A stretch of 64,000 nucleotides of DNA from Alloacidobacterium dinghuense. GTDB lineage: Bacteria > Acidobacteriota > Terriglobia > Terriglobales > Acidobacteriaceae. Numbering within the stretch: position 1 is the first letter of the stretch; each line of letters opens with the position of its first letter. Below, in pieces: positions 2,517-55,925 of this stretch. The position numbers and the translations under genes are program-made. The stretch lies in contig NZ_CP060394.1 in NCBI RefSeq assembly GCF_014274465.1, forward strand, positions 1,178,001 to 1,242,000, in the 5' to 3' direction. Below the pieces are notes generated by a model, which had not been told where the DNA came from, did no database searches, and worked only from the letters and a program-made list of their open reading frames with translations.

Positions 2517-5267
2517 ATGTCTTCTTCCGATAAAAAGCCTGTCTTCCTGCTCGATTCGATGTCGTTCATCTTCCGTGCCTACCACGCGATGCAGCGTCAG
2601 AGGCCCATGTCCACGCGCAAAGGCGTGCCAACAGCAGCCACCTACGTCTTCGTGAACATGATCAACAAGCTGCGCCGCGACTTCCAGCCAGAGTACTTTG
2701 CCGCCGTCTTCGACATCAGCGGACAGGTCTTCCGTGACGAACGGGCCCGCGCCATGACCAAGATCCGCAAGTTCAACATCAAGACGCAGACCTTCGACGA
2801 GATCGACTACGAGGGCTACAAAGCCAACCGCACCGAAATGCCGCCGGACCTGAAGCAGCAACTCCCCTACATCCGACGCGCCCTCGAAGCCTTCCACATT
2901 CCGATCCTGCAAGCCGAAGGATTCGAAGCGGATGACGTCATCGGTACGTTAGCAAAGAAGGCCGCAGAAGAAGGCCACCCAGTCTACGTTGTCTCGAATG
3001 ACAAGGACATGCTGCAGCTGGTAAACGACGACGTAAAAGTCCTGAACCCGGTGAAAGACAACATGGTTCTCGACCGCGCCAAAGTCGAAGAAACGCTCGG
3101 TGTGCCACCCGAAAAGGTAATTGATGTCATGGCCCTACGCGGCGACTCCATCGACAACATCCCCGGCGCACCCGGCATCGGCGACAAGGGTTCTGTTGAA
3201 ATCATTCAGCAATTTGGCACTCTGGACGCAGCTCTCGATCGAGCATCTGAAGTAAAGCGCAAGACCTATCGCGAATCGCTGGAGAATAACCGCGACAACA
3301 TCCTACTGAGCAAAGAACTGGTGACGATCCATTGCGAAGTGCCGCTTGAACTCGACCTGAATGCGATGCGAACGCAGCCAAACGACGTGAGCGCCTGCCG
3401 CCAACTCTTCACTGAGCTTGAATTCACAACTTTGCTGAAGGAGCTTGCTCCGGCTGAAGTGGAGCACCCGGTCGAACATGTGCTCAACCCTTCAACGGAA
3501 GAGATTGAAAATTTCATTACACAAGCACGCCAAAACGGCTTCGCATTTGCTTTGCCAACATCCGAATTGGAAACGATAGCCGAGCAGGTTAGCGAGAAGG
3601 AAGCAGAGAGCGTTGAGGAGAACGAGCCGAAATTCAAGACCATGTCGCTTCTTGATCTGGCCGAAACAACAGAGCCGACTTCTTCAGGGAAACAGGAATT
3701 GCGGATTGCTGTGGCCGCCAACACCGAACAGGCGTTGCTGGCTCCGCTGAGTGCCATCAAGCAGATTCTTGAAGACGAGTCTATTTCCAAGCGTGTGCAC
3801 GATCTGAAAGGTGCTCTTCGTGCCTTGGAGCATCAAGGTGTGCAACTCAGGAATGCGCTTGACGACCTGATGCTCTACTCGTATCTCATCAATCCGACCC
3901 ACGCCTCTCATCGGTTGAGTGATGTTGCGGCGCGTTTCAGCAATCATCCTTTACGAGAAACGGGAGAAAATGAACTCACCGAAGCAGTGCACGCGGTGCA
4001 GACACTCACTCCAGTCTTGCGCAGTGAAGCGGATGCATTGGAAACGCGTCAGGCCTACGAAACCATCGACCTTCCGCTGGTCCCCATTTTGCTGCGCATG
4101 GAGGAAGCGGGCGTCCGCATCGACTCTGGTGTTCTACAACGGATGGGAGAACGGCTTTCGACGGAAATCCATCGGGTCGGCGAGGAGATCTACCAGCGCT
4201 CTGGACATCGCTTCAATATCAACTCACCAAAGCAACTCGGTGATGTGCTCTTTAACAAAATGAACCTGCCCAAGCCGCTCAAGTACGGCAAAGGTAAGGT
4301 AGTTTCCACTGCGCAAGATGTGCTCGAAGAACTTGCCGATCACAATGAGGTGCCGCGACTGGTTCTTGAATACAGGCAGCTCGCCAAGTTGAAGTCGAAC
4401 TATGTGCATTCGCTGCCTCTGCTGGCAGATAGTGAAGGTCGCGTACATACGACGTTCAATCAAGTGGGTACAGCCACGGGGAGGTTATCATCGACGAATC
4501 CCAATCTGCAGAACATCCCGATACGTACTGAGCTAGGGCGCGAGATTCGAGCTGCATTCATCGCAGCGCCGGGCCGGGTTCTCTTCTCGGCGGATTATTC
4601 GCAGATTGAACTACGACTGATGGCGCATTTCTCCGACGATCCTTTGCTCGTTCGCGCCTATCAGACCGGACAAGACATCCACACGTTGACTGCTTCCGAG
4701 GTCTTTGGTGTTCCCGTAGACAAGATGAGCAAGGAGACCCGCAATCGAGCCAAAGCCGTGAACTTTGGCATTGTTTATGGAATCTCACCATTTGGATTAG
4801 CACAGCAACTTGGCATCGATCAGCACGAGGCGAGACTCTATATCGACACTTACTTTGCACGCTATCAGGGAGTGCGCGCTTACATTGATCATTTGCTCGA
4901 GGAAGTTCGGCGTGACCAGCGGGTGAAGACAATCTTTGGACGCGTGCGGCCCATCCCGGATATTCAAAGCCGCAATGCCAATCTCCGCGGATTTGCAGAA
5001 CGCACCGCTGTCAACACCCCACTGCAGGGAACAGCAGCGGATTTGATTAAGCTGGCGATGATCCGGATCGATCGTCGATTCGCTGAAGAGAAATTGAGTA
5101 CTGTGATGACTTTACAGGTCCATGATGAATTGCTCTTCGATGTGCCTGAAGACGAAGCGGATCAGGTGCAGGCTATGGTTAAGCACGAGATGGAGCACGT
5201 CGTTGAATTGAAGGTGCCCATCGTTGCTGATTGCGGACTGGGACCAAATTGGCGAGACCTGAAATAG
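2517..5267 (+). CDS. polA: DNA polymerase I, proofreading domain apparently inactive
   Basis: A 916-residue family A polymerase for Okazaki fragment maturation and repair. The N-terminal 5'-3' nuclease (about 1-300) keeps its acidic motifs, e.g. EGFEADDVIGTLA and GDSIDNIPGAPGIGDKG. The C-terminal polymerase (about 520-916) has motif A DYSQIELRLM near 690, motif B RNRAKAVNFG near 741 and motif C VHDELLFD near 868. The middle domain (about 320-510) lacks the acidic residues of 3'-5' exonucleases: there is no DxE, and the expected Exo II aspartate is replaced in VHDLKGALRAL. An insertion of about 20 residues lies between FRDE (about 73) and YKANR (about 99). It is probably an active gap-filling polymerase without proofreading. 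Confidence 0.96.
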   Translation: MSSSDKKPVFLLDSMSFIFRAYHAMQRQRPMSTRKGVPTAATYVFVNMINKLRRDFQPEYFAAVFDISGQVFRDERARAMTKIRKFNIKTQTFDEIDYEGYKANRTEMPPDLKQQLPYIRRALEAFHIPILQAEGFEADDVIGTLAKKAAEEGHPVYVVSNDKDMLQLVNDDVKVLNPVKDNMVLDRAKVEETLGVPPEKVIDVMALRGDSIDNIPGAPGIGDKGSVEIIQQFGTLDAALDRASEVKRKTYRESLENNRDNILLSKELVTIHCEVPLELDLNAMRTQPNDVSACRQLFTELEFTTLLKELAPAEVEHPVEHVLNPSTEEIENFITQARQNGFAFALPTSELETIAEQVSEKEAESVEENEPKFKTMSLLDLAETTEPTSSGKQELRIAVAANTEQALLAPLSAIKQILEDESISKRVHDLKGALRALEHQGVQLRNALDDLMLYSYLINPTHASHRLSDVAARFSNHPLRETGENELTEAVHAVQTLTPVLRSEADALETRQAYETIDLPLVPILLRMEEAGVRIDSGVLQRMGERLSTEIHRVGEEIYQRSGHRFNINSPKQLGDVLFNKMNLPKPLKYGKGKVVSTAQDVLEELADHNEVPRLVLEYRQLAKLKSNYVHSLPLLADSEGRVHTTFNQVGTATGRLSSTNPNLQNIPIRTELGREIRAAFIAAPGRVLFSADYSQIELRLMAHFSDDPLLVRAYQTGQDIHTLTASEVFGVPVDKMSKETRNRAKAVNFGIVYGISPFGLAQQLGIDQHEARLYIDTYFARYQGVRAYIDHLLEEVRRDQRVKTIFGRVRPIPDIQSRNANLRGFAERTAVNTPLQGTAADLIKLAMIRIDRRFAEEKLSTVMTLQVHDELLFDVPEDEADQVQAMVKHEMEHVVELKVPIVADCGLGPNWRDLK

Positions 5268-5298
5268 CGCCGGTGCCTTCAGGTCCCTGCTGAGAGAG

Positions 5299-6648
5299 TT
5301 ATGCGCCGAGCGCTTCGCGGATCGCACCGGCGATGCGGTCGGCATGATGCCGCATTGCTTCTTCAGATTCAGCTTCGATCATGACACGAGCCAGTGCTTC
5401 CGTTCCGGAATAGCGCACGACGACGCGTCCATTTTCTGCAAGCTCTGTTTCTGCCTCACGAATTGTGCTTCTGACGGTTGCAATTTCCTCCAGCGGCTTT
5501 TTCTCTTTCACGCGGACATTGACGATGACCTGCGGAAAGACTTTCAGATCCGCAATGAGTTCATGCAGCGGTTTTCGGGCACGGCGAATAATGTCGAGCA
5601 CGACGAGCGCGGTCAGAAGCCCATCGCCTGTAGTCGCAAGGTGCGGGAAGAGAATATGGCCGGACTGCTCGCCACCAAGTGAAGCGTCTTCCTGCTGCAT
5701 GCGCTCCAGCACGTACTTGTCACCTACGGGAGCACGCAGCATCAGAATGCCATCGCTACGCAGTGCTGCTTCGAGGCCCATGTTCGACATGGTTGTAGCT
5801 ACAACCAGTCCCCGCTTGAGAAGCTTGCGCGCCAAGAGATCGCGCGCGGCGAGAAGAAGCACGGCATCTCCATTTACGACATTGCCGTGGGCATCGGCAA
5901 ACAGGGCGCGATCGGCATCGCCATCGAAGGTCACACCCAAGTCTGCGCGGAGTGATTTCGTTTCGGCAGCGACAACTTCCGGATGAAGGGCGCCACAAGT
6001 CGCATTGATGTTGCGGCCAGTCGGCGAGATGTGCGTGAGATCGATTCTTCCGCCAAGCTGAGCAAACAGTTCCGGCGCTATTGCTGATGCCGCTCCATTC
6101 GCACAGTCGAGGACTAGACGTAAACCGTCGAGGCTGAGATCAGGAACGGCCTCTCGCAGAAAATCTTCGTAGTCCGCGCGAAAGCGAGGATTGACTGTTG
6201 GCGCAGTCAGAGAGGAAATGTCAGGAGCAGCTACATTTTCCAACTGGCGAAATATTTCTTCTTCGATGCGCAGTTCTATTTCATCGGGAAGCTTATAACC
6301 GTTCCCGCCGAAGACTTTGATGCCGTTGTCCTGCCAGGGATTGTGAGACGCCGAGATCACGACTCCTGCATCGAAGCCATGCGTTCGCGCAAGATACGCA
6401 ACAGCCGGAGTGGTGATGATGCCGGCGCTCTCGACCTTAGCCCCCCCGCTGACGATGCCAGCGCTGAGCGCGGCTGCAATCCAGCTGCTCGATTCGCGCG
6501 TGTCCATGCCAAGGAGCAGGCGCGGATGACTATTGCTTGCTCTTACTTGGTGCGCGAGTGCCAGCCCAACCGCGTAAATGGTTTTGGGATCGAGTGGCGA
6601 TTGACCGGCTACGCCGCGAATGCCATCAGTGCCGAAAAGTTTTCTCAT
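5299..6648 (-). CDS. glmM: Phosphoglucosamine mutase
   Basis: GlmM converts glucosamine-6-phosphate to glucosamine-1-phosphate, feeding UDP-GlcNAc for peptidoglycan and lipopolysaccharide. The 449-residue length is usual. It starts MRKLFGTDGIRGVAG, has the phosphoserine loop ISASHNP (serine about 101), the metal loop FDGDADR, the sugar-binding GGEQSGH and the phosphate-binding RYSGTEALARVM near the end. Only three bases separate it from the upstream xseA stop, so it is the last gene of a DUF2905-xseA-glmM operon. It converges on polA with 31 bases between them. Confidence 0.96.
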   Translation of the reverse strand: MRKLFGTDGIRGVAGQSPLDPKTIYAVGLALAHQVRASNSHPRLLLGMDTRESSSWIAAALSAGIVSGGAKVESAGIITTPAVAYLARTHGFDAGVVISASHNPWQDNGIKVFGGNGYKLPDEIELRIEEEIFRQLENVAAPDISSLTAPTVNPRFRADYEDFLREAVPDLSLDGLRLVLDCANGAASAIAPELFAQLGGRIDLTHISPTGRNINATCGALHPEVVAAETKSLRADLGVTFDGDADRALFADAHGNVVNGDAVLLLAARDLLARKLLKRGLVVATTMSNMGLEAALRSDGILMLRAPVGDKYVLERMQQEDASLGGEQSGHILFPHLATTGDGLLTALVVLDIIRRARKPLHELIADLKVFPQVIVNVRVKEKKPLEEIATVRSTIREAETELAENGRVVVRYSGTEALARVMIEAESEEAMRHHADRIAGAIREALGA

Positions 6649-46021: not shown

Positions 46022-46534
46022 TTAATCAAATCGCCCTTCGTCAGCCGATGGTCCAAAGATGGCAGGCACAGCTGCGCCATTTAGTCGCAGGTACACGGTC
46101 AGCTGTCCGCGATGGTGGGCGAGGTGACTGAAGACAGCATCGCGGATCATGATGTGCCGCGGATTCTCGCTGACCACTTTGCCGCTAACGACAAATTTCC
46201 AAGGCGTGAGCAGGTGTTCATCCGTTGTATTCTCCAGCGCCTTCCTTGCCTTCGCCACCGATTCATCCAGAGCTGCCAGCAATTCCTTGTTCGTCTTCAA
46301 TTCTTTCGGCCTGAATTTTGGGGCATCCTTCGGCGCCATATCCAGCTGGTCCTGGTTCACCATCATGTCGGTCCAACCAAGAATCGTCGCCACTAGAGTT
46401 GCCAGGTAGCCCAAAGGCATCGACTTCTCGTGTGGCTTCCAGTCATCGCGGCCCTCGGGTACACGCTCTAATACTCGGCGCGTCGAGGCGGCTTCACGTT
46501 CCAGATCAGCGAGGAAGAGTGTCGAATAGAGCAT
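46022..46534 (-). CDS. DinB/YfiT-like protein
   Basis: About 170 residues of the DinB four-helix fold (putative metal-dependent hydrolases or thiol transferases). HLAHHRGQLTVYLRLNG near the C-terminus is characteristic and gives two of the three usual histidines. The first one, normally in the second helix, appears replaced in GYLATLVATI, so metal binding may be altered. The ATG at 46534 is used; the frame opens at TTG 46609, but that stretch includes an inverted repeat end (46597-46612) and lacks family similarity. No ribosome binding site is clear. Confidence 0.72.
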   Translation of the reverse strand: MLYSTLFLADLEREAASTRRVLERVPEGRDDWKPHEKSMPLGYLATLVATILGWTDMMVNQDQLDMAPKDAPKFRPKELKTNKELLAALDESVAKARKALENTTDEHLLTPWKFVVSGKVVSENPRHIMIRDAVFSHLAHHRGQLTVYLRLNGAAVPAIFGPSADEGRFD

Positions 46535-46596
46535 AATTTGGGTTCGCGCCACATTATATGCTTTCAGGAAGACGTTGCAGATTGATCGGACGAATG

Positions 46597-46612
46597 GGTA
46601 GTGGGTCAATTT
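46597..46612. repeat. Left copy of 16-bp inverted repeat
   Basis: GGTAGTGGGTCAATTT. Its reverse complement matches AAGTTGACCCACTACC at 48461-48476 in 15 of 16 positions. The pair brackets the cupin gene, the integrase remnant and the tRNA fragment. It looks like the end of a decayed insertion sequence. Confidence 0.55.
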
Positions 46613-46902
46613 AAGTCTTCTGCCAGGTTCTAGTTACCGCTGACGCCGCTTAACGGGAACCTTTTAGCGATTGGGATTACTTCCGGATGGCCGACCACAC
46701 AACCAGAGCCCACTATCTTAGCGATGGGTTGCCGTACCGAAGCTATGTGCGGCGAATCTCCCATGCGTCTGCAGCTCTATGCCTTGGCCCTAGCCAGAGC
46801 CATTGTTCAATTGTCTAATCGATAACATATTTTATCGTCTAGTAAAAGACCGGGGCGGTCGTCCGACAGAACGTCCTTTATGTCCGGCTATCTGGTTTAC
46901 GC
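46613..46902. other. Intergenic region inside the scarred segment
   Basis: About 290 bases between the left inverted repeat and the cupin gene. No gene, terminator or known repeat is recognised. It may be decayed mobile-element sequence. Confidence 0.35.
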
Positions 46903-47760
46903 TCACCGTGCGACGAACGAACTGACCGAGTCGACGACAGTTCGCCAGATAGTCCTGTGAAGATAGCGGTCCCTCGCCATGCGCGGCCAGTAGTGCAAGC
47001 CGTGTCGGCGCAATGCTTGATCTACGCGAGCCTGCCACCAGAAATTGACGTTGAGGCTCGCCTCAAGCGTACGGAACTGATGCCACCAGTAAATGGGAAT
47101 GTAAATGAAGTCGCCGGGCTCGAGGATCGCACGGAACGGAGTCGCACGATTGAATAGTGGGTAGCGGGAGAGGTCCGGCTTTTCGATCTCGACACGGCTG
47201 AAGTTCGACATGTAGTCCCAAGCGCTTCGTGGATAAAGCTCGTCGAGCTGCGTCGAAGGGAACAGAATGATCTCCTTTCGGCCAAGGAGTTGGATGTTGA
47301 TGTTATCCTCCGTGTCGTAGTGTGTCTTCGTCACGTTTCCGGTCGACCCCATCCAGATGTTCTTGGTGATGAACTTGCGTAGAACGTACCGGATTGGCGG
47401 CGACTCTTCGTTTAGCGCACCCCACGTGTGGAGGGGCTGCTGGTGGACGCGACACTTCTCGTCCGCGTTCGCCGGCGCGAATATACTATCGACGACCTTA
47501 GCGAACGCAATTTTCGGTTCGACACCGATTTTCAGCCTCTCGGCATAGTCGAGGTAGTCGCCATTCGTGGAAACGCCAATCTCTAGAATACGCGTACCGT
47601 ACATTGCCTTCAAATACTCGGGCGTCCATTTGTACGAAGGGGGCCAGTCTTTGACGGCGCCACGCACGATGACGGGACGCTCGGGACGCACATAGCGTTC
47701 AGCGAACTCTTCGACGCTCGGTGCGAGAGCGACGTCGACAGGTGCAGCGTCCTCAAACAT
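46903..47760 (-). CDS. JmjC/cupin_8-type Fe(II)/2-oxoglutarate oxygenase
   Basis: 285 residues. It starts with a region like RPERPVIVRGAVKDWPP, followed by GSTGNVTKTHYDTEDNINIQLLG with the HxD iron ligands, KEIILFPS and IPIYWWHQFRTL with the distal histidine, the pattern of cupin_8/JmjC hydroxylases. Such enzymes hydroxylate protein side chains or small molecules; the substrate is unknown. It stands alone between two inverted repeats in a gene-poor segment, so it may be cargo of a mobile element. Confidence 0.82.
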   Translation of the reverse strand: MFEDAAPVDVALAPSVEEFAERYVRPERPVIVRGAVKDWPPSYKWTPEYLKAMYGTRILEIGVSTNGDYLDYAERLKIGVEPKIAFAKVVDSIFAPANADEKCRVHQQPLHTWGALNEESPPIRYVLRKFITKNIWMGSTGNVTKTHYDTEDNINIQLLGRKEIILFPSTQLDELYPRSAWDYMSNFSRVEIEKPDLSRYPLFNRATPFRAILEPGDFIYIPIYWWHQFRTLEASLNVNFWWQARVDQALRRHGLHYWPRMARDRYLHRTIWRTVVDSVSSFVAR

Positions 47761-47979
47761 GCGGCGGATATTATCACGGGCGCGACTGACGCGCCACGCC
47801 TTTTTTGGCCGCAGTGGCAGTGGGCGGTTGGAAGCCCCTTCTGAAAGGCGGCTCCGCTCCCGTCTTGTTGAGGCACGGAGTCAAGCAGCCAAAGTTGTTA
47901 GGGCGTGAACTCATAGACCCGCCATTGGACAGGTTGCCCAATGTCCGCATCGGGCCAATCGCGTCATCTTGGCGCCCCG
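47761..47979. other. Gene-poor stretch before the integrase remnant
   Basis: About 220 bases. Frames cross it, but none resembles a family. The part joined to the integrase remnant is probably degraded recombinase sequence. Confidence 0.3.
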
Positions 47980-48110
47980 CCGTCAACGTCCGGTCCACCC
48001 CCCGGATAACGCTTGACGTTTACACGCAGGCGACGACGACCAGCAAGCGTGCCGCCCACCCGGAGATCATCCGCAATTACCCGGTGCGCCAGCCGTTGTT
48101 GTGGGTGTGA
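47980..48110 (+). pseudogene. C-terminal remnant of a tyrosine recombinase/integrase
   Basis: The plus-strand frame ending at 48110 reads RITLDVYTQATTTSKRAA followed by HPEIIRN. This resembles the last part of phage-type integrases, where the catalytic tyrosine sits in TLDVYTxA. The upstream arginine and histidine motifs are missing and the preceding residues are unlike the family, so it is a fragment. It ends seven bases before a 3' tRNA fragment, the normal position of an integrase beside its attachment site. Confidence 0.55.
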
Positions 48111-48116
48111 ATTTGT

Positions 48117-48180
48117 TGGTGCCCGGAGGGGGGACTTGAACCCCCACGGCCGGTTAAGGCCTGCGGATTTAAGTTCGGGA
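48117..48180 (-). pseudogene. 3' fragment of a Leu-type tRNA, likely attachment site
   Basis: Read on the minus strand it contains an anticodon-loop-like CTTAAAT, a variable arm GGCC-TTAACC-GGCC, a T arm GGGGG-TTCAAGT-CCCCC and an end TCCGGGCACCA. The long variable arm points to tRNA-Leu. The 5' half is absent: upstream bases cannot form the D arm or the acceptor strand. One extra C lies between T stem and acceptor. A 3' tRNA half next to an integrase end is the mark of an integrated element. Confidence 0.65.
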
Positions 48181-48798
48181 TCTAATTGTCCATGATCGAT
48201 CATGGAGTAATGGTTTGTTGAGCTTAAGGGGAAACTTTTTCTACTAAGTCCACGGAAATGCCATGAATTCCATTCTGGTTCCCACCAAAGTCTCCCACCA
48301 GCTCTTACTTAAACGGCGGAATGCCAATGAGATTAGGTTCCGCTAGAGTCAGTCTTCGGTTCCGACCATCGCGTGGATGTTCTGGGTGGATCACCGGCAA
48401 TACGGAAGTAACCCCGAAGGTGCCTCTGAAGTCTGCTTATCGATAACTCACACCGAGATCAAGTTGACCCACTACCGACGCACACGGATGGTTACAAAAG
48501 AACTGTATTGTCAGCCCTGTTGCCAGCTGAAGGCTTCTGCATGGCCGACGCTACCCAACTCCGCTGCGATGATCGGAAGGGAGCTGAACGTCCAAGCGGT
48601 CCAGCCGAATCATTAGGCGATTTGGGCGGCTCCCACAATAGCGGTGACTCAGGCACCCGTACATAGGTGCGTTTTCCAGTCGGTAACAATCACCATTCTA
48701 GAGCCGCAATTCAACGGGTAAGTCGAGTTGCATTTGTCAACGATTCGCTCGAGAGGCGAGGTACGGTAGGATCGGGAAAATGCGCCTCAGGAGGCTGG
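48181..48798. other. Non-coding stretch upstream of the M1 peptidase
   Basis: About 620 bases with the right copy of the 16-bp inverted repeat (48461-48476) and otherwise no recognised feature. Frames of 65-79 codons have no ribosome site or family similarity. The final 130 bases probably contain the peptidase promoter, but no clear -35/-10 pair stands out. Confidence 0.4.
48461..48476. repeat. Right copy of 16-bp inverted repeat
   Basis: AAGTTGACCCACTACC, inverted relative to 46597-46612 with one mismatch. Together they delimit about 1.9 kb. Confidence 0.55.
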
Positions 48799-51471: not shown

Positions 51472-51511
51472 CGGCTGCCTTCTTATTGCCTGACAAATCA
51501 ACCCTGGCATA

Positions 51512-51530
51512 TATGACATCCTGTGTCATA
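51512..51530. promoter_or_regulatory. Palindrome upstream of the HTH-WYL-PP2C gene, candidate operator
   Basis: TATGACA (51512-51518) and TGTCATA (51524-51530) are a perfect inverted repeat with spacer TCCTG, about 53 bases before the start. The encoded protein has a helix-turn-helix domain, so this is a natural autoregulatory site. The following CATAAT overlaps and could be the -10 element. Confidence 0.5.
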
Positions 51531-51583
51531 ATTGCCGCGACGCCTTTATAAACTTTTTCGAGCCTTCCAAGAGACCAATTTCC

Positions 51584-53098
51584 ATGAGAGCCGATCGCCT
51601 GATGTCTGCACTGCTGTTGCTGCAAGCGCGTGGGCAGATGACCGGCCGTGAACTGGCCGCGAGGCTCGAAGTCTCCGAGCGCACCGTTCATCGCGACATG
51701 GAAGCGCTCAGCGCCGCCGGTGTCCCGGTCTTTGCCATGCGAGGGTCGCATGGTGGCTGGCAGCTCGATGAGGGCTGGCGCACGCAGGCGCCCGGCCTGG
51801 ACCAAACCGAGCTCCGTTCACAACTCATGGCCCAGCCGCGCACGCCGGGAGACAAGCGTCTTGCCGCAGCCGCTGACCGTGCCATCGGCAAAGTGATGGC
51901 TGCGCTACCAGAGCCGCTGCGCGAGAAAGCATCTTCGATCCGCGACCGGCTTTTTATTGACACGACCGGATGGCGCGGCACAACCGAGAATCTCTCCATG
52001 CTCGCCATCGTGCAGGATGCCGTTGCGCAGGATCGCAAGTTGAGCTTCTGGTATTGGCGTGCTGGCCGCGAGCGTGTGGAGCGCACTGTGGATCCTCTCG
52101 GACTCGTTGCCAAGGGCAGCACCTGGTATCTGTTTGCGGGCACCGATCATGGCTATCGCACGTATCGTATCTCGCGTATGGAAGACGCGAAGCTGCTCGA
52201 TGCTCTGAGCGTGCGTCCGCCGAATTTTGACCTGGAAGCTGCGTGGAAGATTTCGGCTGAGGAATTTCGTGATGAGGTGAATCGCGAGATGGAGGCCGCG
52301 CGACGCGCCTACGAGGCTCGCCTGGAAGCAGAGCGCAGAGCGGTGCAGGAAATGGAAATCGCACGTCAGGTGCAGGCACGGCTGTTTCCGCAGCAGCTGC
52401 CTGAGAGCCTGTCGCTGGACTACGCCGGCATCTGCATTCAGGCGCGCAAGGTTGGCGGCGATTATTACGACTTTCTCGATCTCGGCTCGCAGCGCCTCGG
52501 ACTGGTCATCGGTGATATTGCTGGGAAGGGAATCGCAGGCGCTCTATTGATGGCGAACCTCCAGGCAAATCTCCGCGGCCAGCTTGCCATGGTTGTCGAT
52601 CAACCGCAGCGTCTTCTGCATTCTGTGAATCAGCTCTTCTTCAAGAACACTGCCGAACATGCGTATGCAACGCTCATCTTCGCCGAATATGACGACAAGG
52701 CGCAGATGCTGCGCTACGCAAACTGCGGACATCTTCCCGCTCTCCTGCTGCGCTGCAGCGGCGAGATGGAACGGCTGCACTCCACCTGCACCGTCGTTGG
52801 CCTTTTTGATGACTGGGAGTGCAAGTCGAGCGAAGCGTGCCTTTTGCCTGGAGACACATTGGCTCTGTATACCGATGGCGTAACCGAGGCATGCAACGAT
52901 CAGGGTGAAGAGTTCGGAGAGGAGCGACTGGCGGATGCGTTACGCAGATATCGAAATCACTCTGCCAGCGGATTGCTGCAGTCCGTAGTGAATGAAGTTC
53001 AGAGCTTCAGCCCTCAGGAGCAGCAGGATGACATTACGCTGATCGTCGCGCGGTGCCGGGAGACGGATCAGCGAATGCTGTTCGATCGTCCTGTGTAA
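51584..53098 (+). CDS. HTH-WYL regulator fused to a SpoIIE/RsbU-type PP2C phosphatase
   Basis: 504 residues with an unusual domain order. Residues 1-60 are a DeoR/HTH_11-type DNA-binding domain (GRELAARLEVSERTVHRDME). A WYL domain follows (about 140-210; FWYWRAGRERVERTVDPLG, KGSTWYLFAG with W181-Y182-L183). A charged coiled coil (about 225-268) ends in the RsbU-like ARQVQARLFPQQLP, and a PP2C-type phosphatase (about 278-490) keeps its metal aspartates: D293 (GGDYYDF), D311 (GDIAGKG), D431 (LYTDGVTEA) and D482/D483 (QQDDITLIV). The WYL C-terminal extension is replaced by the phosphatase. It may link a ligand or nucleic acid signal to dephosphorylation of an anti-sigma antagonist (inference). 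Confidence 0.9.
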   Translation: MRADRLMSALLLLQARGQMTGRELAARLEVSERTVHRDMEALSAAGVPVFAMRGSHGGWQLDEGWRTQAPGLDQTELRSQLMAQPRTPGDKRLAAAADRAIGKVMAALPEPLREKASSIRDRLFIDTTGWRGTTENLSMLAIVQDAVAQDRKLSFWYWRAGRERVERTVDPLGLVAKGSTWYLFAGTDHGYRTYRISRMEDAKLLDALSVRPPNFDLEAAWKISAEEFRDEVNREMEAARRAYEARLEAERRAVQEMEIARQVQARLFPQQLPESLSLDYAGICIQARKVGGDYYDFLDLGSQRLGLVIGDIAGKGIAGALLMANLQANLRGQLAMVVDQPQRLLHSVNQLFFKNTAEHAYATLIFAEYDDKAQMLRYANCGHLPALLLRCSGEMERLHSTCTVVGLFDDWECKSSEACLLPGDTLALYTDGVTEACNDQGEEFGEERLADALRRYRNHSASGLLQSVVNEVQSFSPQEQQDDITLIVARCRETDQRMLFDRPV

Positions 53099-53958: not shown

Positions 53959-54768
53959 ATGAGTTTTGAGTCTTCCATCGAATGGACTGATTCAACTTGG
54001 AATCCAGTTCGGGGCTGCACGAAGATTAGTCCGGGTTGCAAACACTGCTATGCATGCACTTTTGCCGAACGCTTCCAAGGTGTCAAAGGACATCCCTATG
54101 AAGAGGGTTTTAAGCTACGACTCGTCCCTGAAAAACTCGCAGAACCTCTGAAATGGGGAAGTTCACGTATGGTCTTTGTGAACTCCATGAGTGACCTTTT
54201 CCATAAAGATGTTCCTGATGCATACATACAACGAGTGGTAGAAGTGATGGCTACCGCAAATTGGCACACTTTTCAGTTGCTAACCAAACGTGCTGAGCGT
54301 ATGCGCGATCTGCTTGCGGGCCCACTTAAAAAATTCGCGGACTTGCCGCACATATGGTGGGGCGTGAGTGTCGAAAACAAGAAGCATGGTTTACCAAGGC
54401 TTCAGGCATTACGAAAGGCTACTGCTTCTATGCGGTTTCTTTCAATTGAACCGCTTTTAGAAGATCTTGGGAGTTTTGATTTACAAGGAATTAGTTGGGT
54501 AATCGTCGGCGGAGAAAGCGGCCCGGGAGCCCGTCCGCTACTTGCAGATTGGGTACGAAACATACAAGAGCAATGCAAGAATCAACAAGTGGCATTCTTT
54601 TTTAAACAGTGGGGTGGCCGTAATAAAAAGAAGGCTGGGCGACTTCTTGACGGTAGAACTTTTGATGAATTTCCAAGAGTAGTGAAGAATAAACCACCAC
54701 ATTCGATGGTAAGGCATGAACACATCCAAAATTTGGAGGCGCGTAGTCTTGTCAGTATTCAGTTATGA
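53959..54768 (+). CDS. DUF5131 (phage Gp37/Gp68) three-Cys-motif protein
   Basis: 269 residues. The N-terminus has C20, C27 and C30 in RGCTKISPGCKHCYA, the three-cysteine signature of DUF5131, which resembles a radical-SAM/iron-sulfur site. Further conserved stretches are FVNSMSDLFHKDVPD, FQLLTKRAERM, WWGVSVEN, SIEPLLEDLG, IVGGESGPGARP and FFFKQWGG. Its biochemical role is not established. The codon use is AT-rich, unlike the neighbours. The stop overlaps the ATG of tcmP (ATGA). It is likely horizontally acquired as a two-gene unit. Confidence 0.88.
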   Translation: MSFESSIEWTDSTWNPVRGCTKISPGCKHCYACTFAERFQGVKGHPYEEGFKLRLVPEKLAEPLKWGSSRMVFVNSMSDLFHKDVPDAYIQRVVEVMATANWHTFQLLTKRAERMRDLLAGPLKKFADLPHIWWGVSVENKKHGLPRLQALRKATASMRFLSIEPLLEDLGSFDLQGISWVIVGGESGPGARPLLADWVRNIQEQCKNQQVAFFFKQWGGRNKKKAGRLLDGRTFDEFPRVVKNKPPHSMVRHEHIQNLEARSLVSIQL

Positions 54769-55925
54769 AAGAAAATGCGTATGATGAAGATCGATTACAA
54801 ACGCAGGTAAAGCATAAGTTATTAGATAGATATCTTTCTGCTGCTGTCCCAATAATTGGAAGTTGGGCGGCGGAAATTTGTTATGTTGACTGTCTTGCGG
54901 GACCATGGAATGAGACCTCTAGCGATCTCTCTGATACCTCCTTCTCTGTTGCGCTGAATGTATTGCGAAAAACTCGCAATACCCTGCTGCAGCGCGGTAA
55001 ATCACCATCAATGCGCTGTATTTTCAACGAATGGGAGGACGTCCCTTTTGAAAAGCTTTCAGCATTTTGTCGAACAGTCGCCGATATTGAGGTCGATCCG
55101 CGCAATTGGGACTTTGAAAGGCACGTCAAAGATGTAGTTAAGTTGGCGACAAATAGAACCAAGTCATTTCCGTTTTTTTTCATTGATCCAACGGGATGGG
55201 AGTTAGCATCTGTACCTCTCATTAAGCCGATATTGCAGATAAGCCCCGGAGAAGTGCTCATTAACCTTATGACATCCTGGATTAGGAGGTTTCTGTCGGA
55301 TGAGAAAAAAGACTTTGTACGATTGCTCGGCGAAGACGCAAAACGAATAGCTCAGCTTAGCGGTGATGAGCAAGAAGAAGAGCTTGTCAGATGTTACTCG
55401 GAAGCAGTTAGAAAGGCAGGTAATTTTCCCTACGTTTGTACAATGCCCATTCTGAAATCGAAGCAAGAGTCATTCCATTTCCACATGGTCTATGCGACCC
55501 GCCATCCCACAGGCGTAAAGGAGTTTAAGAAGGCCGAAGGCGATGTTGTTCCATTCATGCATGAGGTCCGTGCCGAAGCTCGACATCAAAGAGAATTTCA
55601 GGCAACTGGGCAATATTCATTTTTGGAGCCGCTCGATACTTATTCCGATAGGCGATATGCAAGGTATCATCGCAGAAACTTGGAACAAGCCTCACAAGCG
55701 GCGTTGGAACTACTTAGTTCTAGCGAAGTAGTTCAGTTTGACGATCTATGGGCGAAATGGATGCAGTTTGCTTGTGTCAAGGATGATGAGTTGCAATCAT
55801 GGATGCGTGATAGGGAAAAACGAGGGTTGTTGAAAATTGATAACTTATCGGGACGAGCCAAAAAGCTATCCTTTGGTAATGGAATTACTCTAACCTCGGC
55901 AGGTGCGCCCATTTCCCATGATTAA
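54765..55925 (+). CDS. tcmP: Three-Cys-motif partner protein TcmP
   Basis: 386 residues matching the TcmP family, named for its pairing with DUF5131 genes. YVDCLAGPW (40-48) resembles the D-x-F-A-G-x-G nucleotide-binding start of methyltransferase-like folds, and FFFIDPTGW (137-145) resembles the following acidic motif. The C-terminal half is helical and charged. It shares the AT-rich composition of its partner and starts inside that gene's stop codon. A role in phage defence or RNA/DNA modification has no direct support here. Confidence 0.8.
   Translation: MKENAYDEDRLQTQVKHKLLDRYLSAAVPIIGSWAAEICYVDCLAGPWNETSSDLSDTSFSVALNVLRKTRNTLLQRGKSPSMRCIFNEWEDVPFEKLSAFCRTVADIEVDPRNWDFERHVKDVVKLATNRTKSFPFFFIDPTGWELASVPLIKPILQISPGEVLINLMTSWIRRFLSDEKKDFVRLLGEDAKRIAQLSGDEQEEELVRCYSEAVRKAGNFPYVCTMPILKSKQESFHFHMVYATRHPTGVKEFKKAEGDVVPFMHEVRAEARHQREFQATGQYSFLEPLDTYSDRRYARYHRRNLEQASQAALELLSSSEVVQFDDLWAKWMQFACVKDDELQSWMRDREKRGLLKIDNLSGRAKKLSFGNGITLTSAGAPISHD

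What the first reader, a model, noticed from the sequence alone, without database searches (positions are those of the whole stretch)
51584..53098. Single protein joining an HTH-WYL transcription regulator to an RsbU/SpoIIE-type phosphatase
HTH and WYL domains normally form stand-alone repressors or activators, and PP2C SpoIIE domains normally act on anti-anti-sigma factors. Here both are intact in one 504-residue chain: the WYL triplet is at 181-183 and all PP2C metal aspartates are kept. The phosphatase replaces the usual WYL C-terminal extension through a coiled coil. This could couple DNA occupancy or a nucleic-acid or nucleotide signal directly to a partner-switching cascade.
Basis: partly seen in the sequence, partly recalled or inferred. 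Interest (0 to 1): 0.75.

Follow-up and report, generated by a model that had tools for sequence, protein, structure and literature searches.

The report
DNA-binding regulator fused to a phosphatase
In a few soil Acidobacteria, a stress-type gene switch with its own DNA recognition site has been joined to a signalling phosphatase in one protein, so one sensor may drive two different kinds of stress response.

Summary
Window 51584-53098(+) encodes one intact 504-aa protein: HTH_11, WYL, a ~50-residue helix, SpoIIE/PP2C. Six acidobacterial genomes carry it full length, with low dN/dS wherever dS could be estimated, so it is no frameshift. It is rare: about 1,000 distinct Acidobacteriota genomes were searched.

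Both parents survive separately. The front half resembles stand-alone HTH-WYL-WCX regulators that face a divergent DinB gene (27 of 31 fetched loci) across a 19-bp palindrome, TATGACA-N5-TGTCATA. The back half matches VOC (glyoxalase-like)-coiled-coil-PP2C phosphatases, without gaps in the linker.

The window has one perfect palindrome, 53 bp before the gene, the only exact copy in its 6.27-Mb genome. In 200 family genomes exact sites occur only where this regulator occurs (16 of 21, against 0 of 179).

Closest known regulator: mycobacterial SiwR (ssDNA-sensing, activates divergent dinB genes, 19-bp palindrome). I conclude that a SiwR-like regulator exchanged its WCX domain for an RsbU-type phosphatase and kept its operator. 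DNA recognition is well supported by comparison; phosphatase activity and its gating are inferred. New variant of known kinds.

The parts
51584..53098 (+). Fusion gene: HTH_11 - WYL - helical linker - SpoIIE/PP2C, 504 aa
   Evidence: same full-length protein in five other genomes
51605..51760 (+). HTH_11 DNA-binding domain, residues 8-59; motif SERTVHRDME at 31-40
   Evidence: lowest dN of the five segments in 5 of 6 pairs of the closest four fusions
51998..52192 (+). WYL domain, residues 139-203; WYL triplet 181-183; R195/R198 align with PafC R201/R204
52232..52384 (+). Continuous predicted helix, residues 217-267, joining WYL to PP2C; similarity to phosphatases begins near residue 229
   Evidence: model; gap-free alignment with VOC-PP2C linkers
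52487..53056 (+). SpoIIE/RsbU-type PP2C domain, residues 302-491; conserved aspartates D293 (just before the Pfam match), D311, D431, D482, D483
51512..51530 (.). Putative operator: perfect 19-bp palindrome TATGACA-N5-TGTCATA
   Evidence: also in front of stand-alone relatives and four other fusions
51504..51532 (+). Promoter-like site (CTGGCA - 17 - CATAAT, TG before the second hexamer) that the palindrome overlaps
   Evidence: consensus scan only
46022..46609 (-). DinB-family gene: homologue of the divergent partner of the relatives, here about 5 kb from the palindrome

Best explanation
A two-output stress regulator. Its ancestor was a SiwR-like HTH-WYL-WCX transcription factor that bound a 19-bp palindrome between its own gene and a divergent dinB gene. 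In one acidobacterial lineage the WCX domain was replaced by the coiled coil and PP2C domain of a VOC-PP2C phosphatase. The protein most likely acts as a dimer held by the HTH end, the helical linker and the PP2C domains. It binds its palindrome through the HTH. The WYL domain binds a signal, probably single-stranded DNA from damage, through R195/R198. Ligand binding shifts the linker helices and so sets phosphatase activity against a phosphorylated STAS anti-anti-sigma factor, such as the conserved RsbV-like protein, freeing a sigma factor. Shown by sequence: the intact fusion, its two parent families, the conserved palindrome, conserved catalytic residues, purifying selection, and partner-switching genes in the genome. 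Inferred: DNA binding by the fusion itself, ssDNA as ligand, signal passage through the linker, dimer form, substrate, and direction of gene control.
For: Intact fusion in six genomes; dN/dS 0.02-0.27 over all pairs and segments where dS could be estimated. Both parent families found separately. Palindrome: one exact copy in the own genome, in front of this gene; exact sites in 16 of 200 family genomes, all 16 among the 21 that carry the regulator half (Fisher p 1.2e-19, genomes not independent); within two mismatches in 31 of 31 fetched stand-alone loci and 5 of 6 fusions (some of these loci were fetched because one search had shown a site). Hexamer nAnnnT at a fixed distance on the DinB side in 35 of 36 loci. 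R-x-x-R pair kept. Linker gap-free with VOC-PP2Cs and predicted as one helix. PP2C part matches RssB, SiaA, Rv1364c and SpoIIE structures. A STAS protein 90-100% identical among five fusion genomes, and 66-71% in the sixth, is the only PF01740 match in G130. Literature: SiwR (PMC10693628) and the coiled-coil linker mechanism of RsbU-type phosphatases (PMC12143880).
Against: Nothing biochemical was tested. WCX helps form the ssDNA tunnel in PafBC (PMC11804915 passages) and is missing here, so ligand binding may have changed. The sixth fusion (G690) has no palindrome within two mismatches and no detected DinB neighbour, and has Q for H at residue 36. In this window DinB lies about 5 kb away, so here the palindrome can serve only the fusion gene itself unless it acts at a distance. 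Single origin is moderately supported for the front half (86/77, 88% of 200 bootstrap trees), but 0% of 200 bootstrap trees of the back half put all six together, although one clade is not rejected. No STAS or RsbW-like gene lies beside the fusion. The HTH was modelled with low confidence.
Confidence: 0.55

Rival explanations
1. Mainly a phosphatase: the HTH-WYL part serves only as a sensory and dimerisation cap on an RsbU-type phosphatase, and DNA binding is vestigial.
For: N-terminal caps of these phosphatases are thought exchangeable (PMC12143880 passages; the VOC cap). G690 has neither the palindrome nor a detected DinB neighbour.
Against: Among the closest four fusions the HTH has the lowest dN in 5 of 6 pairs (in window/G001 the WYL segment is lower), and the palindrome is exact in 4 and one-mismatch in 1 of 6 fusions. 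The window keeps a perfect site although DinB is 5 kb away.
Confidence: 0.2
2. Mainly a transcription factor: the PP2C domain acts as a replacement dimerisation module for WCX, with catalysis irrelevant to function.
For: WCX takes part in dimer contacts in PafBC and in the SiwR model; PP2C domains of this type dimerise. E. coli RssB shows that an inactive PP2C domain can serve as an adaptor (passage).
Against: The conserved aspartates and the DIAGKG/DISGKG motif are kept in 6 of 6 fusions; dN/dS of the PP2C segment is 0.06-0.16 in the 6 of 15 pairs where dS could be estimated.
Confidence: 0.15
3. Autoregulated stress phosphatase: the HTH acts only on the protein's own promoter, to set its own level, while the output is entirely the phosphatase. 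This is a narrower form of the main reading.
For: Only one exact palindrome in the genome, at its own promoter; DinB is displaced in this genome. The mirrored regulator-side hexamer is absent in 5 of 5 fusions compared but present in 26 of 31 stand-alones, so control of its own promoter has changed.
Against: Four of six fusions keep a divergent DinB with its promoter hexamer. The five fusions compared are closely related, so this loss may be a single event.
Confidence: 0.3
4. Artefact: two genes merged by a sequencing error or frameshift.
For: None found.
Against: Six assemblies, one of them a named isolate, share the frame and the junction.
Confidence: 0.01

Closest known systems
SiwR of Mycobacterium smegmatis (PMC10693628; outline, passages and sections 6, 11, 12 seen)
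   Same: HTH-WYL; divergent DinB-superfamily gene; 19-bp imperfect palindrome upstream of the dinB -10; conserved arginine pair in the WYL domain. Some actinobacterial loci also carry a glyoxalase-like gene.
   Different: SiwR has a WCX domain and no phosphatase. The letters of its palindrome are not in the text seen, so the two sites could not be compared base by base.
PafBC (PMC11804915; passages seen)
   Same: HTH-WYL; R201/R204 of PafC align with R195/R198 here; its site lies at -26 of target promoters (PMC10693628 section 12).
   Different: Heterodimer with WCX domains that help form the ssDNA tunnel; no enzyme domain.
RsbU-type general stress phosphatases: RsbU, RsbP, RsbZ, P. aeruginosa RssB (PMC12143880; passages seen)
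   Same: PP2C domain, an alpha-helical linker, and a variable N-terminal sensor.
   Different: Sensors named in the passages seen are the RsbU N-domain, PAS, GAF, response receiver and HAMP; the term DNA-binding has 0 occurrences in the main text.
VOC-coiled-coil-PP2C phosphatases of Acidobacteriota (this work; own paralogue at G000:C1:303475)
   Same: Likely source family of the linker and phosphatase: 54-70% identical over about residues 229-493, no gap in the linker.
   Different: A glyoxalase-like VOC domain in front instead of HTH-WYL (2 of 2 scanned).
WYL-enzyme fusions listed by Makarova et al. 2014 (PMC4012209; passages seen)
   Same: WYL joined to enzymatic domains.
   Different: Partners listed are Cas3, nucleases, a helicase, a nucleotidyltransferase, BRCT and TerB; the word phosphatase does not occur in the main text. 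Its supplementary list was not seen.

Membership tests
SiwR/PafBC-type WYL transcription factors | N-terminal HTH followed by a WYL domain | tested here: met
   HTH_11 and WYL above gathering scores
SiwR/PafBC-type WYL transcription factors | C-terminal WCX domain (present in most members) | tested here: not met
   no WCX match in P0001; WCX in stand-alone relative L059. Hence not filed as a member, only as derived from one
SiwR/PafBC-type WYL transcription factors | Conserved arginine pair in the WYL domain for ssDNA | tested here: met
   R195/R198 aligned with PafC R201/R204; R-x-x-R in every row shown
SiwR/PafBC-type WYL transcription factors | 19-bp palindrome in front of the regulator gene | tested here: met
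   exact at 51512-51530
SiwR/PafBC-type WYL transcription factors | Divergent DinB-superfamily gene next to the regulator | tested here: not met
   in the window DinB lies about 5 kb away; met in 4 of 6 fusions and 27 of 31 stand-alone loci
SiwR/PafBC-type WYL transcription factors | ssDNA binding and activation under genotoxic stress | not testable with these tools
   needs protein and cells
RsbU-type PP2C phosphatases | SpoIIE-type PP2C domain with its conserved aspartates | tested here: met
RsbU-type PP2C phosphatases | Alpha-helical linker in front of the phosphatase | tested here: met
   one predicted helix 217-267; gap-free across fusions and VOC-PP2Cs
RsbU-type PP2C phosphatases | STAS proteins and RsbW-like kinases in the genome | tested here: met
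   presence only, not a proven substrate
RsbU-type PP2C phosphatases | Phosphatase activity regulated by its sensor domain | not testable with these tools
   needs enzyme assays

The most novel reading that the evidence does not exclude
A transcription factor that is also a partner-switching phosphatase: the same ssDNA-sensing WYL domain controls dinB transcription and, through a shared helical linker, dephosphorylates an RsbV-like protein. DNA damage would then feed directly into the general stress response, and palindrome-bound and free molecules would differ in phosphatase activity.
Probability: 0.3. Interest if true: 0.75.

Novelty: new variant of a known kind. Interest (0 to 1): 0.55.

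Why it matters
Work on RsbU proposes that sensor domains are exchangeable on PP2C phosphatases through a shared coiled-coil linker (PMC12143880). This is a natural exchange in which both parent families still exist, the junction can be seen, and the incoming sensor is a DNA-binding factor with a predicted site. It offers a ready test of whether a ligand-binding transcription factor can drive a phosphatase, and of how damage signals could reach partner-switching cascades in Acidobacteriota.

Tried and rejected
Frameshift or merged genes: rejected. Long open frames around four stand-alone regulators (G315, G396, G344, G140) as further fusions: rejected; no PP2C match was found in the stretches fetched around them (L068, L067, L066, L141). 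The exact palindrome at G031:C8 (L132) as a regulon member: rejected; it lies between the 3' ends of two convergent genes, with no regulator or DinB match in 13 kb. The one at G176:C19 (L133) was kept: it precedes a second DinB gene (39% identical). A wider regulon in the own genome: not supported; 8 further sites, each with two mismatches, against 5 for the reversed control. A cognate STAS neighbour: none found. Plasmids: 0 of 72,556 records hold at least 80% of the protein in one place.

Literature: (WYL domain + SpoIIE) 0 papers; one search listed 11, judged by listing except PMC7159879; one search listed 1 (PMC7159879), whose passages show WYL only in a reference title; one search listed 4; 0; one search listed 1, not opened; (WYL + RsbU) 0. 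The library holds open-licence PMC papers only.

Limits: searches scored only the top three candidates per genome at strict cut-offs, so their counts are lower bounds and distant fusions could be missed. Outside Acidobacteriota only (short exact peptide patterns; it returned neither G003 nor G690, so it is not exhaustive) and one search were run. PF13466 (STAS_2) was not searched. No dimer was modelled. That searches used the same 200 genomes rests on identical settings; one search names only 41 of them.

Rows left out: the promoter table has 36 loci, 5 fusions and 31 stand-alones; G690 was left out because no palindrome was found, duplicate loci were counted once, L132 and L133 are not regulators (L133 was printed but not counted), and G113 was not fetched. 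The phosphatase tree used 54 of 63 rows and the clade test 51 of 63; before that, hits with an internal stop or under 230 aa were dropped, uncounted. The regulator tree has 37 rows; L131, which matches in two frames, was left out.

Full report
What is there. The window's ORF 51584-53098(+) encodes one 504-aa protein. Pfam places HTH_11 at 8-59, WYL at 139-203 and SpoIIE at 302-491. A structure prediction on 11 aligned sequences (mean pLDDT 74.9; residues 1-10, 12-19 and 40-90 under 50, so the HTH is poorly modelled) gives a helix and five strands for WYL, one uninterrupted helix 217-267 and a PP2C fold. The best Foldseek matches are RssB, SiaA, Rv1364c and SpoIIE phosphatase domains; no WYL protein is among the 50 rows shown. 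By sequence the front half matches PafBC, PafC and other WYL proteins.

How common. In 398 family genomes, 5 carry the full-length protein: G000 (the window's own), G001, G003, G130 and G038. A class-wide draw of 399 added G690, from another family. A phylum-wide draw of 396 added none. The draws overlap; handles reach at least G1036, so about 1,000 distinct genomes were searched. A pattern scan over named genomes (84,980 species by the tool's description) gave three fusions: Acidobacteriales MAG bin_2, Acidobacteriaceae Centralia_MAG_86 and Paracidobacterium acidisoli 4G-K13. Identity and contig length show these to be G001, G130 and G038. The scan returned neither G003 nor G690. Within genus g1 the fourth genome, G002 (59% complete), has no match; G020, of G130's genus, has none.

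Parents. The first ~228 residues are 54-73% identical to stand-alone regulators (47% in G113) whose frames are mostly 320-350 aa; the one scanned by Pfam ends in WCX. Residues from about 229 on are 54-70% identical to phosphatases with a glyoxalase-like VOC domain in front (Pfam run on 2, both positive; five more N-parts looked alike by eye). A second group of relatives, with long N-termini, shares only the part from about residue 243 on. Fusions and VOC-PP2Cs align without a gap through the linker. The simplest history is replacement of WCX in the regulator by the coiled coil and phosphatase of a VOC-PP2C. In the regulator tree the six fusions form one clade with moderate support (86/77; 88% of 200 bootstrap trees). 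In the phosphatase tree five form a clade (96/92), G690 is unresolved, and 0% of 200 bootstrap trees put all six together; a test on a slightly smaller set does not reject one clade (p-AU 0.60, the held tree scoring 5.6 log units better than the quick search). Whether G690 shares the same fusion event is therefore open.

Selection. Nei-Gojobori estimates from my own script give dN/dS 0.02-0.27 wherever dS could be estimated; dS is often saturated. Among the closest four fusions the HTH has the lowest dN (0.03-0.06) in 5 of 6 pairs; in window/G001 the WYL segment is lower.

Palindrome. TATGACA-N5-TGTCATA lies at 51512-51530; the looser pattern with 2-10 spacer bases is expected 0.01 times per window. 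It is the only exact copy in the 6.27-Mb genome, and none has one mismatch. In 200 family genomes, 16 have exact sites, 18 sites in all, against one site for the reversed control. A separate search with the same settings found the regulator half in 21 of 200. All 16 genomes with sites are among those 21 (Fisher p 1.2e-19; related genomes are not independent). Four of the other five have a one-mismatch site (G038, G043, G140, G170); G113 was not examined. Of the 18 exact sites, 16 precede the regulator, one precedes a second DinB gene (L133), and one has neither (L132). Of 31 stand-alone loci fetched, 24 have an exact site, 5 one mismatch and 2 two mismatches; of 6 fusions, 4 are exact, one has one mismatch and G690 has none within two. 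Some of the 31 were fetched after one search had shown a site, so against one search is the fairer test.

Promoter anatomy. Aligning 36 loci on the palindrome shows a hexamer nAnnnT at a fixed distance on the DinB side in 35 of 36, TAnnnT in 28. Read as a -10 element, it places the palindrome at roughly -41 to -23 of the DinB promoter (inference), comparable with SiwR, whose 19-bp palindrome spans the -10 to -35 region. The one exception is the window, where DinB lies elsewhere. The mirrored hexamer on the regulator side is present in 26 of 31 stand-alones and 0 of 5 fusions (Fisher p 0.0007; the five are related, so this may be one event). In the window a promoter-like site with CATAAT overlaps the palindrome. 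I read this as kept control of dinB in the other fusions and changed control of the fusion gene itself; both are inference.

DinB neighbour. A DinB-family gene lies divergent within about 1 kb in 27 of 31 stand-alone loci and 4 of 6 fusions. In the window the DinB homologue is at 46022-46609(-), separated by about 5 kb that holds a Cupin_8/JmjC gene and an M1 peptidase. Inverted arms at 46597-46612 and 48461-48476 (94% complementary) suggest a past insertion.

Partner switching. The own genome has 32 HATPase_c_2 matches (23 over the cut-off; many in long frames that may be histidine kinases) and 11 STAS matches. All five other fusion genomes have STAS matches. One STAS protein is 90-100% identical among the five family fusions and 66-71% in G690. 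In the own genome its upstream neighbour matches HATPase_c_2; in the other four family genomes the neighbour looks alike by eye, and in G690 it was not annotated. G130, listed as 100% complete, has only this one PF01740 match. It is the best candidate substrate, but nothing ties it to the fusion in particular.

Mechanism. SiwR binds ssDNA through its WYL arginines and activates divergent dinB genes under genotoxic stress (PMC10693628). RsbU is switched on when its linkers form a coiled coil that dimerises the PP2C domains (PMC12143880 passages). The fusion joins these two devices. The most likely working is a dimer that binds its palindrome by HTH, senses a nucleic-acid ligand by WYL and passes the state through the linker helix to the phosphatase. 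DNA recognition rests on comparative evidence; ligand, gating and substrate are inferred.

Membership and novelty. Because WCX is missing, the protein is not filed as a SiwR/PafBC-type member; it is derived from one and may work like one. Its back half meets the sequence features of RsbU-type phosphatases. Exchange of sensors on these phosphatases is a published idea; a DNA-binding WYL regulator as the sensor was not found in the papers searched, which cover only open-licence PMC papers.

Noticed in passing
G000:C1:303475-304266 (L054) and relatives such as L069: VOC (glyoxalase-like)-coiled-coil-PP2C proteins recur across Acidobacteriota; one search for a description found none. The VOC domain may be a sensor for a small molecule.
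   Followed up: partly
window 46597-48476: Inverted arms around a Cupin_8/JmjC gene lie between DinB and the palindrome; this looks like a past insertion that split the divergent pair. The window is the one of 36 loci without the DinB-side hexamer.
   Followed up: partly
window 53959-55925: A DUF5131 gene overlapped by four bases by a 386-aa gene with no Pfam match at E 0.001; likely one operon of unknown function.
   Followed up: no
L133 (G176:C19), palindrome at 6265-6283: A second exact palindrome in a genome that has the stand-alone regulator elsewhere; it precedes a second DinB gene, so the regulator may act in trans there.
   Followed up: partly
L174 (G690): The only fusion outside the window's family has no palindrome within two mismatches, no detected DinB neighbour and Q for H at residue 36; it may bind another site.
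   Followed up: partly
L058 (G038), WYL domain: An insertion of about 17 residues within the WYL domain, only in this one of six fusions.
   Followed up: no
L131 (G134) 5109-5823: A stand-alone regulator that matches in two frames, as if frameshifted near residue 191; left as found.
   Followed up: no
G000:C1:2636432-2636629: The only other WYL domain found in the own genome, in an open frame of 254 aa; not studied.
   Followed up: no
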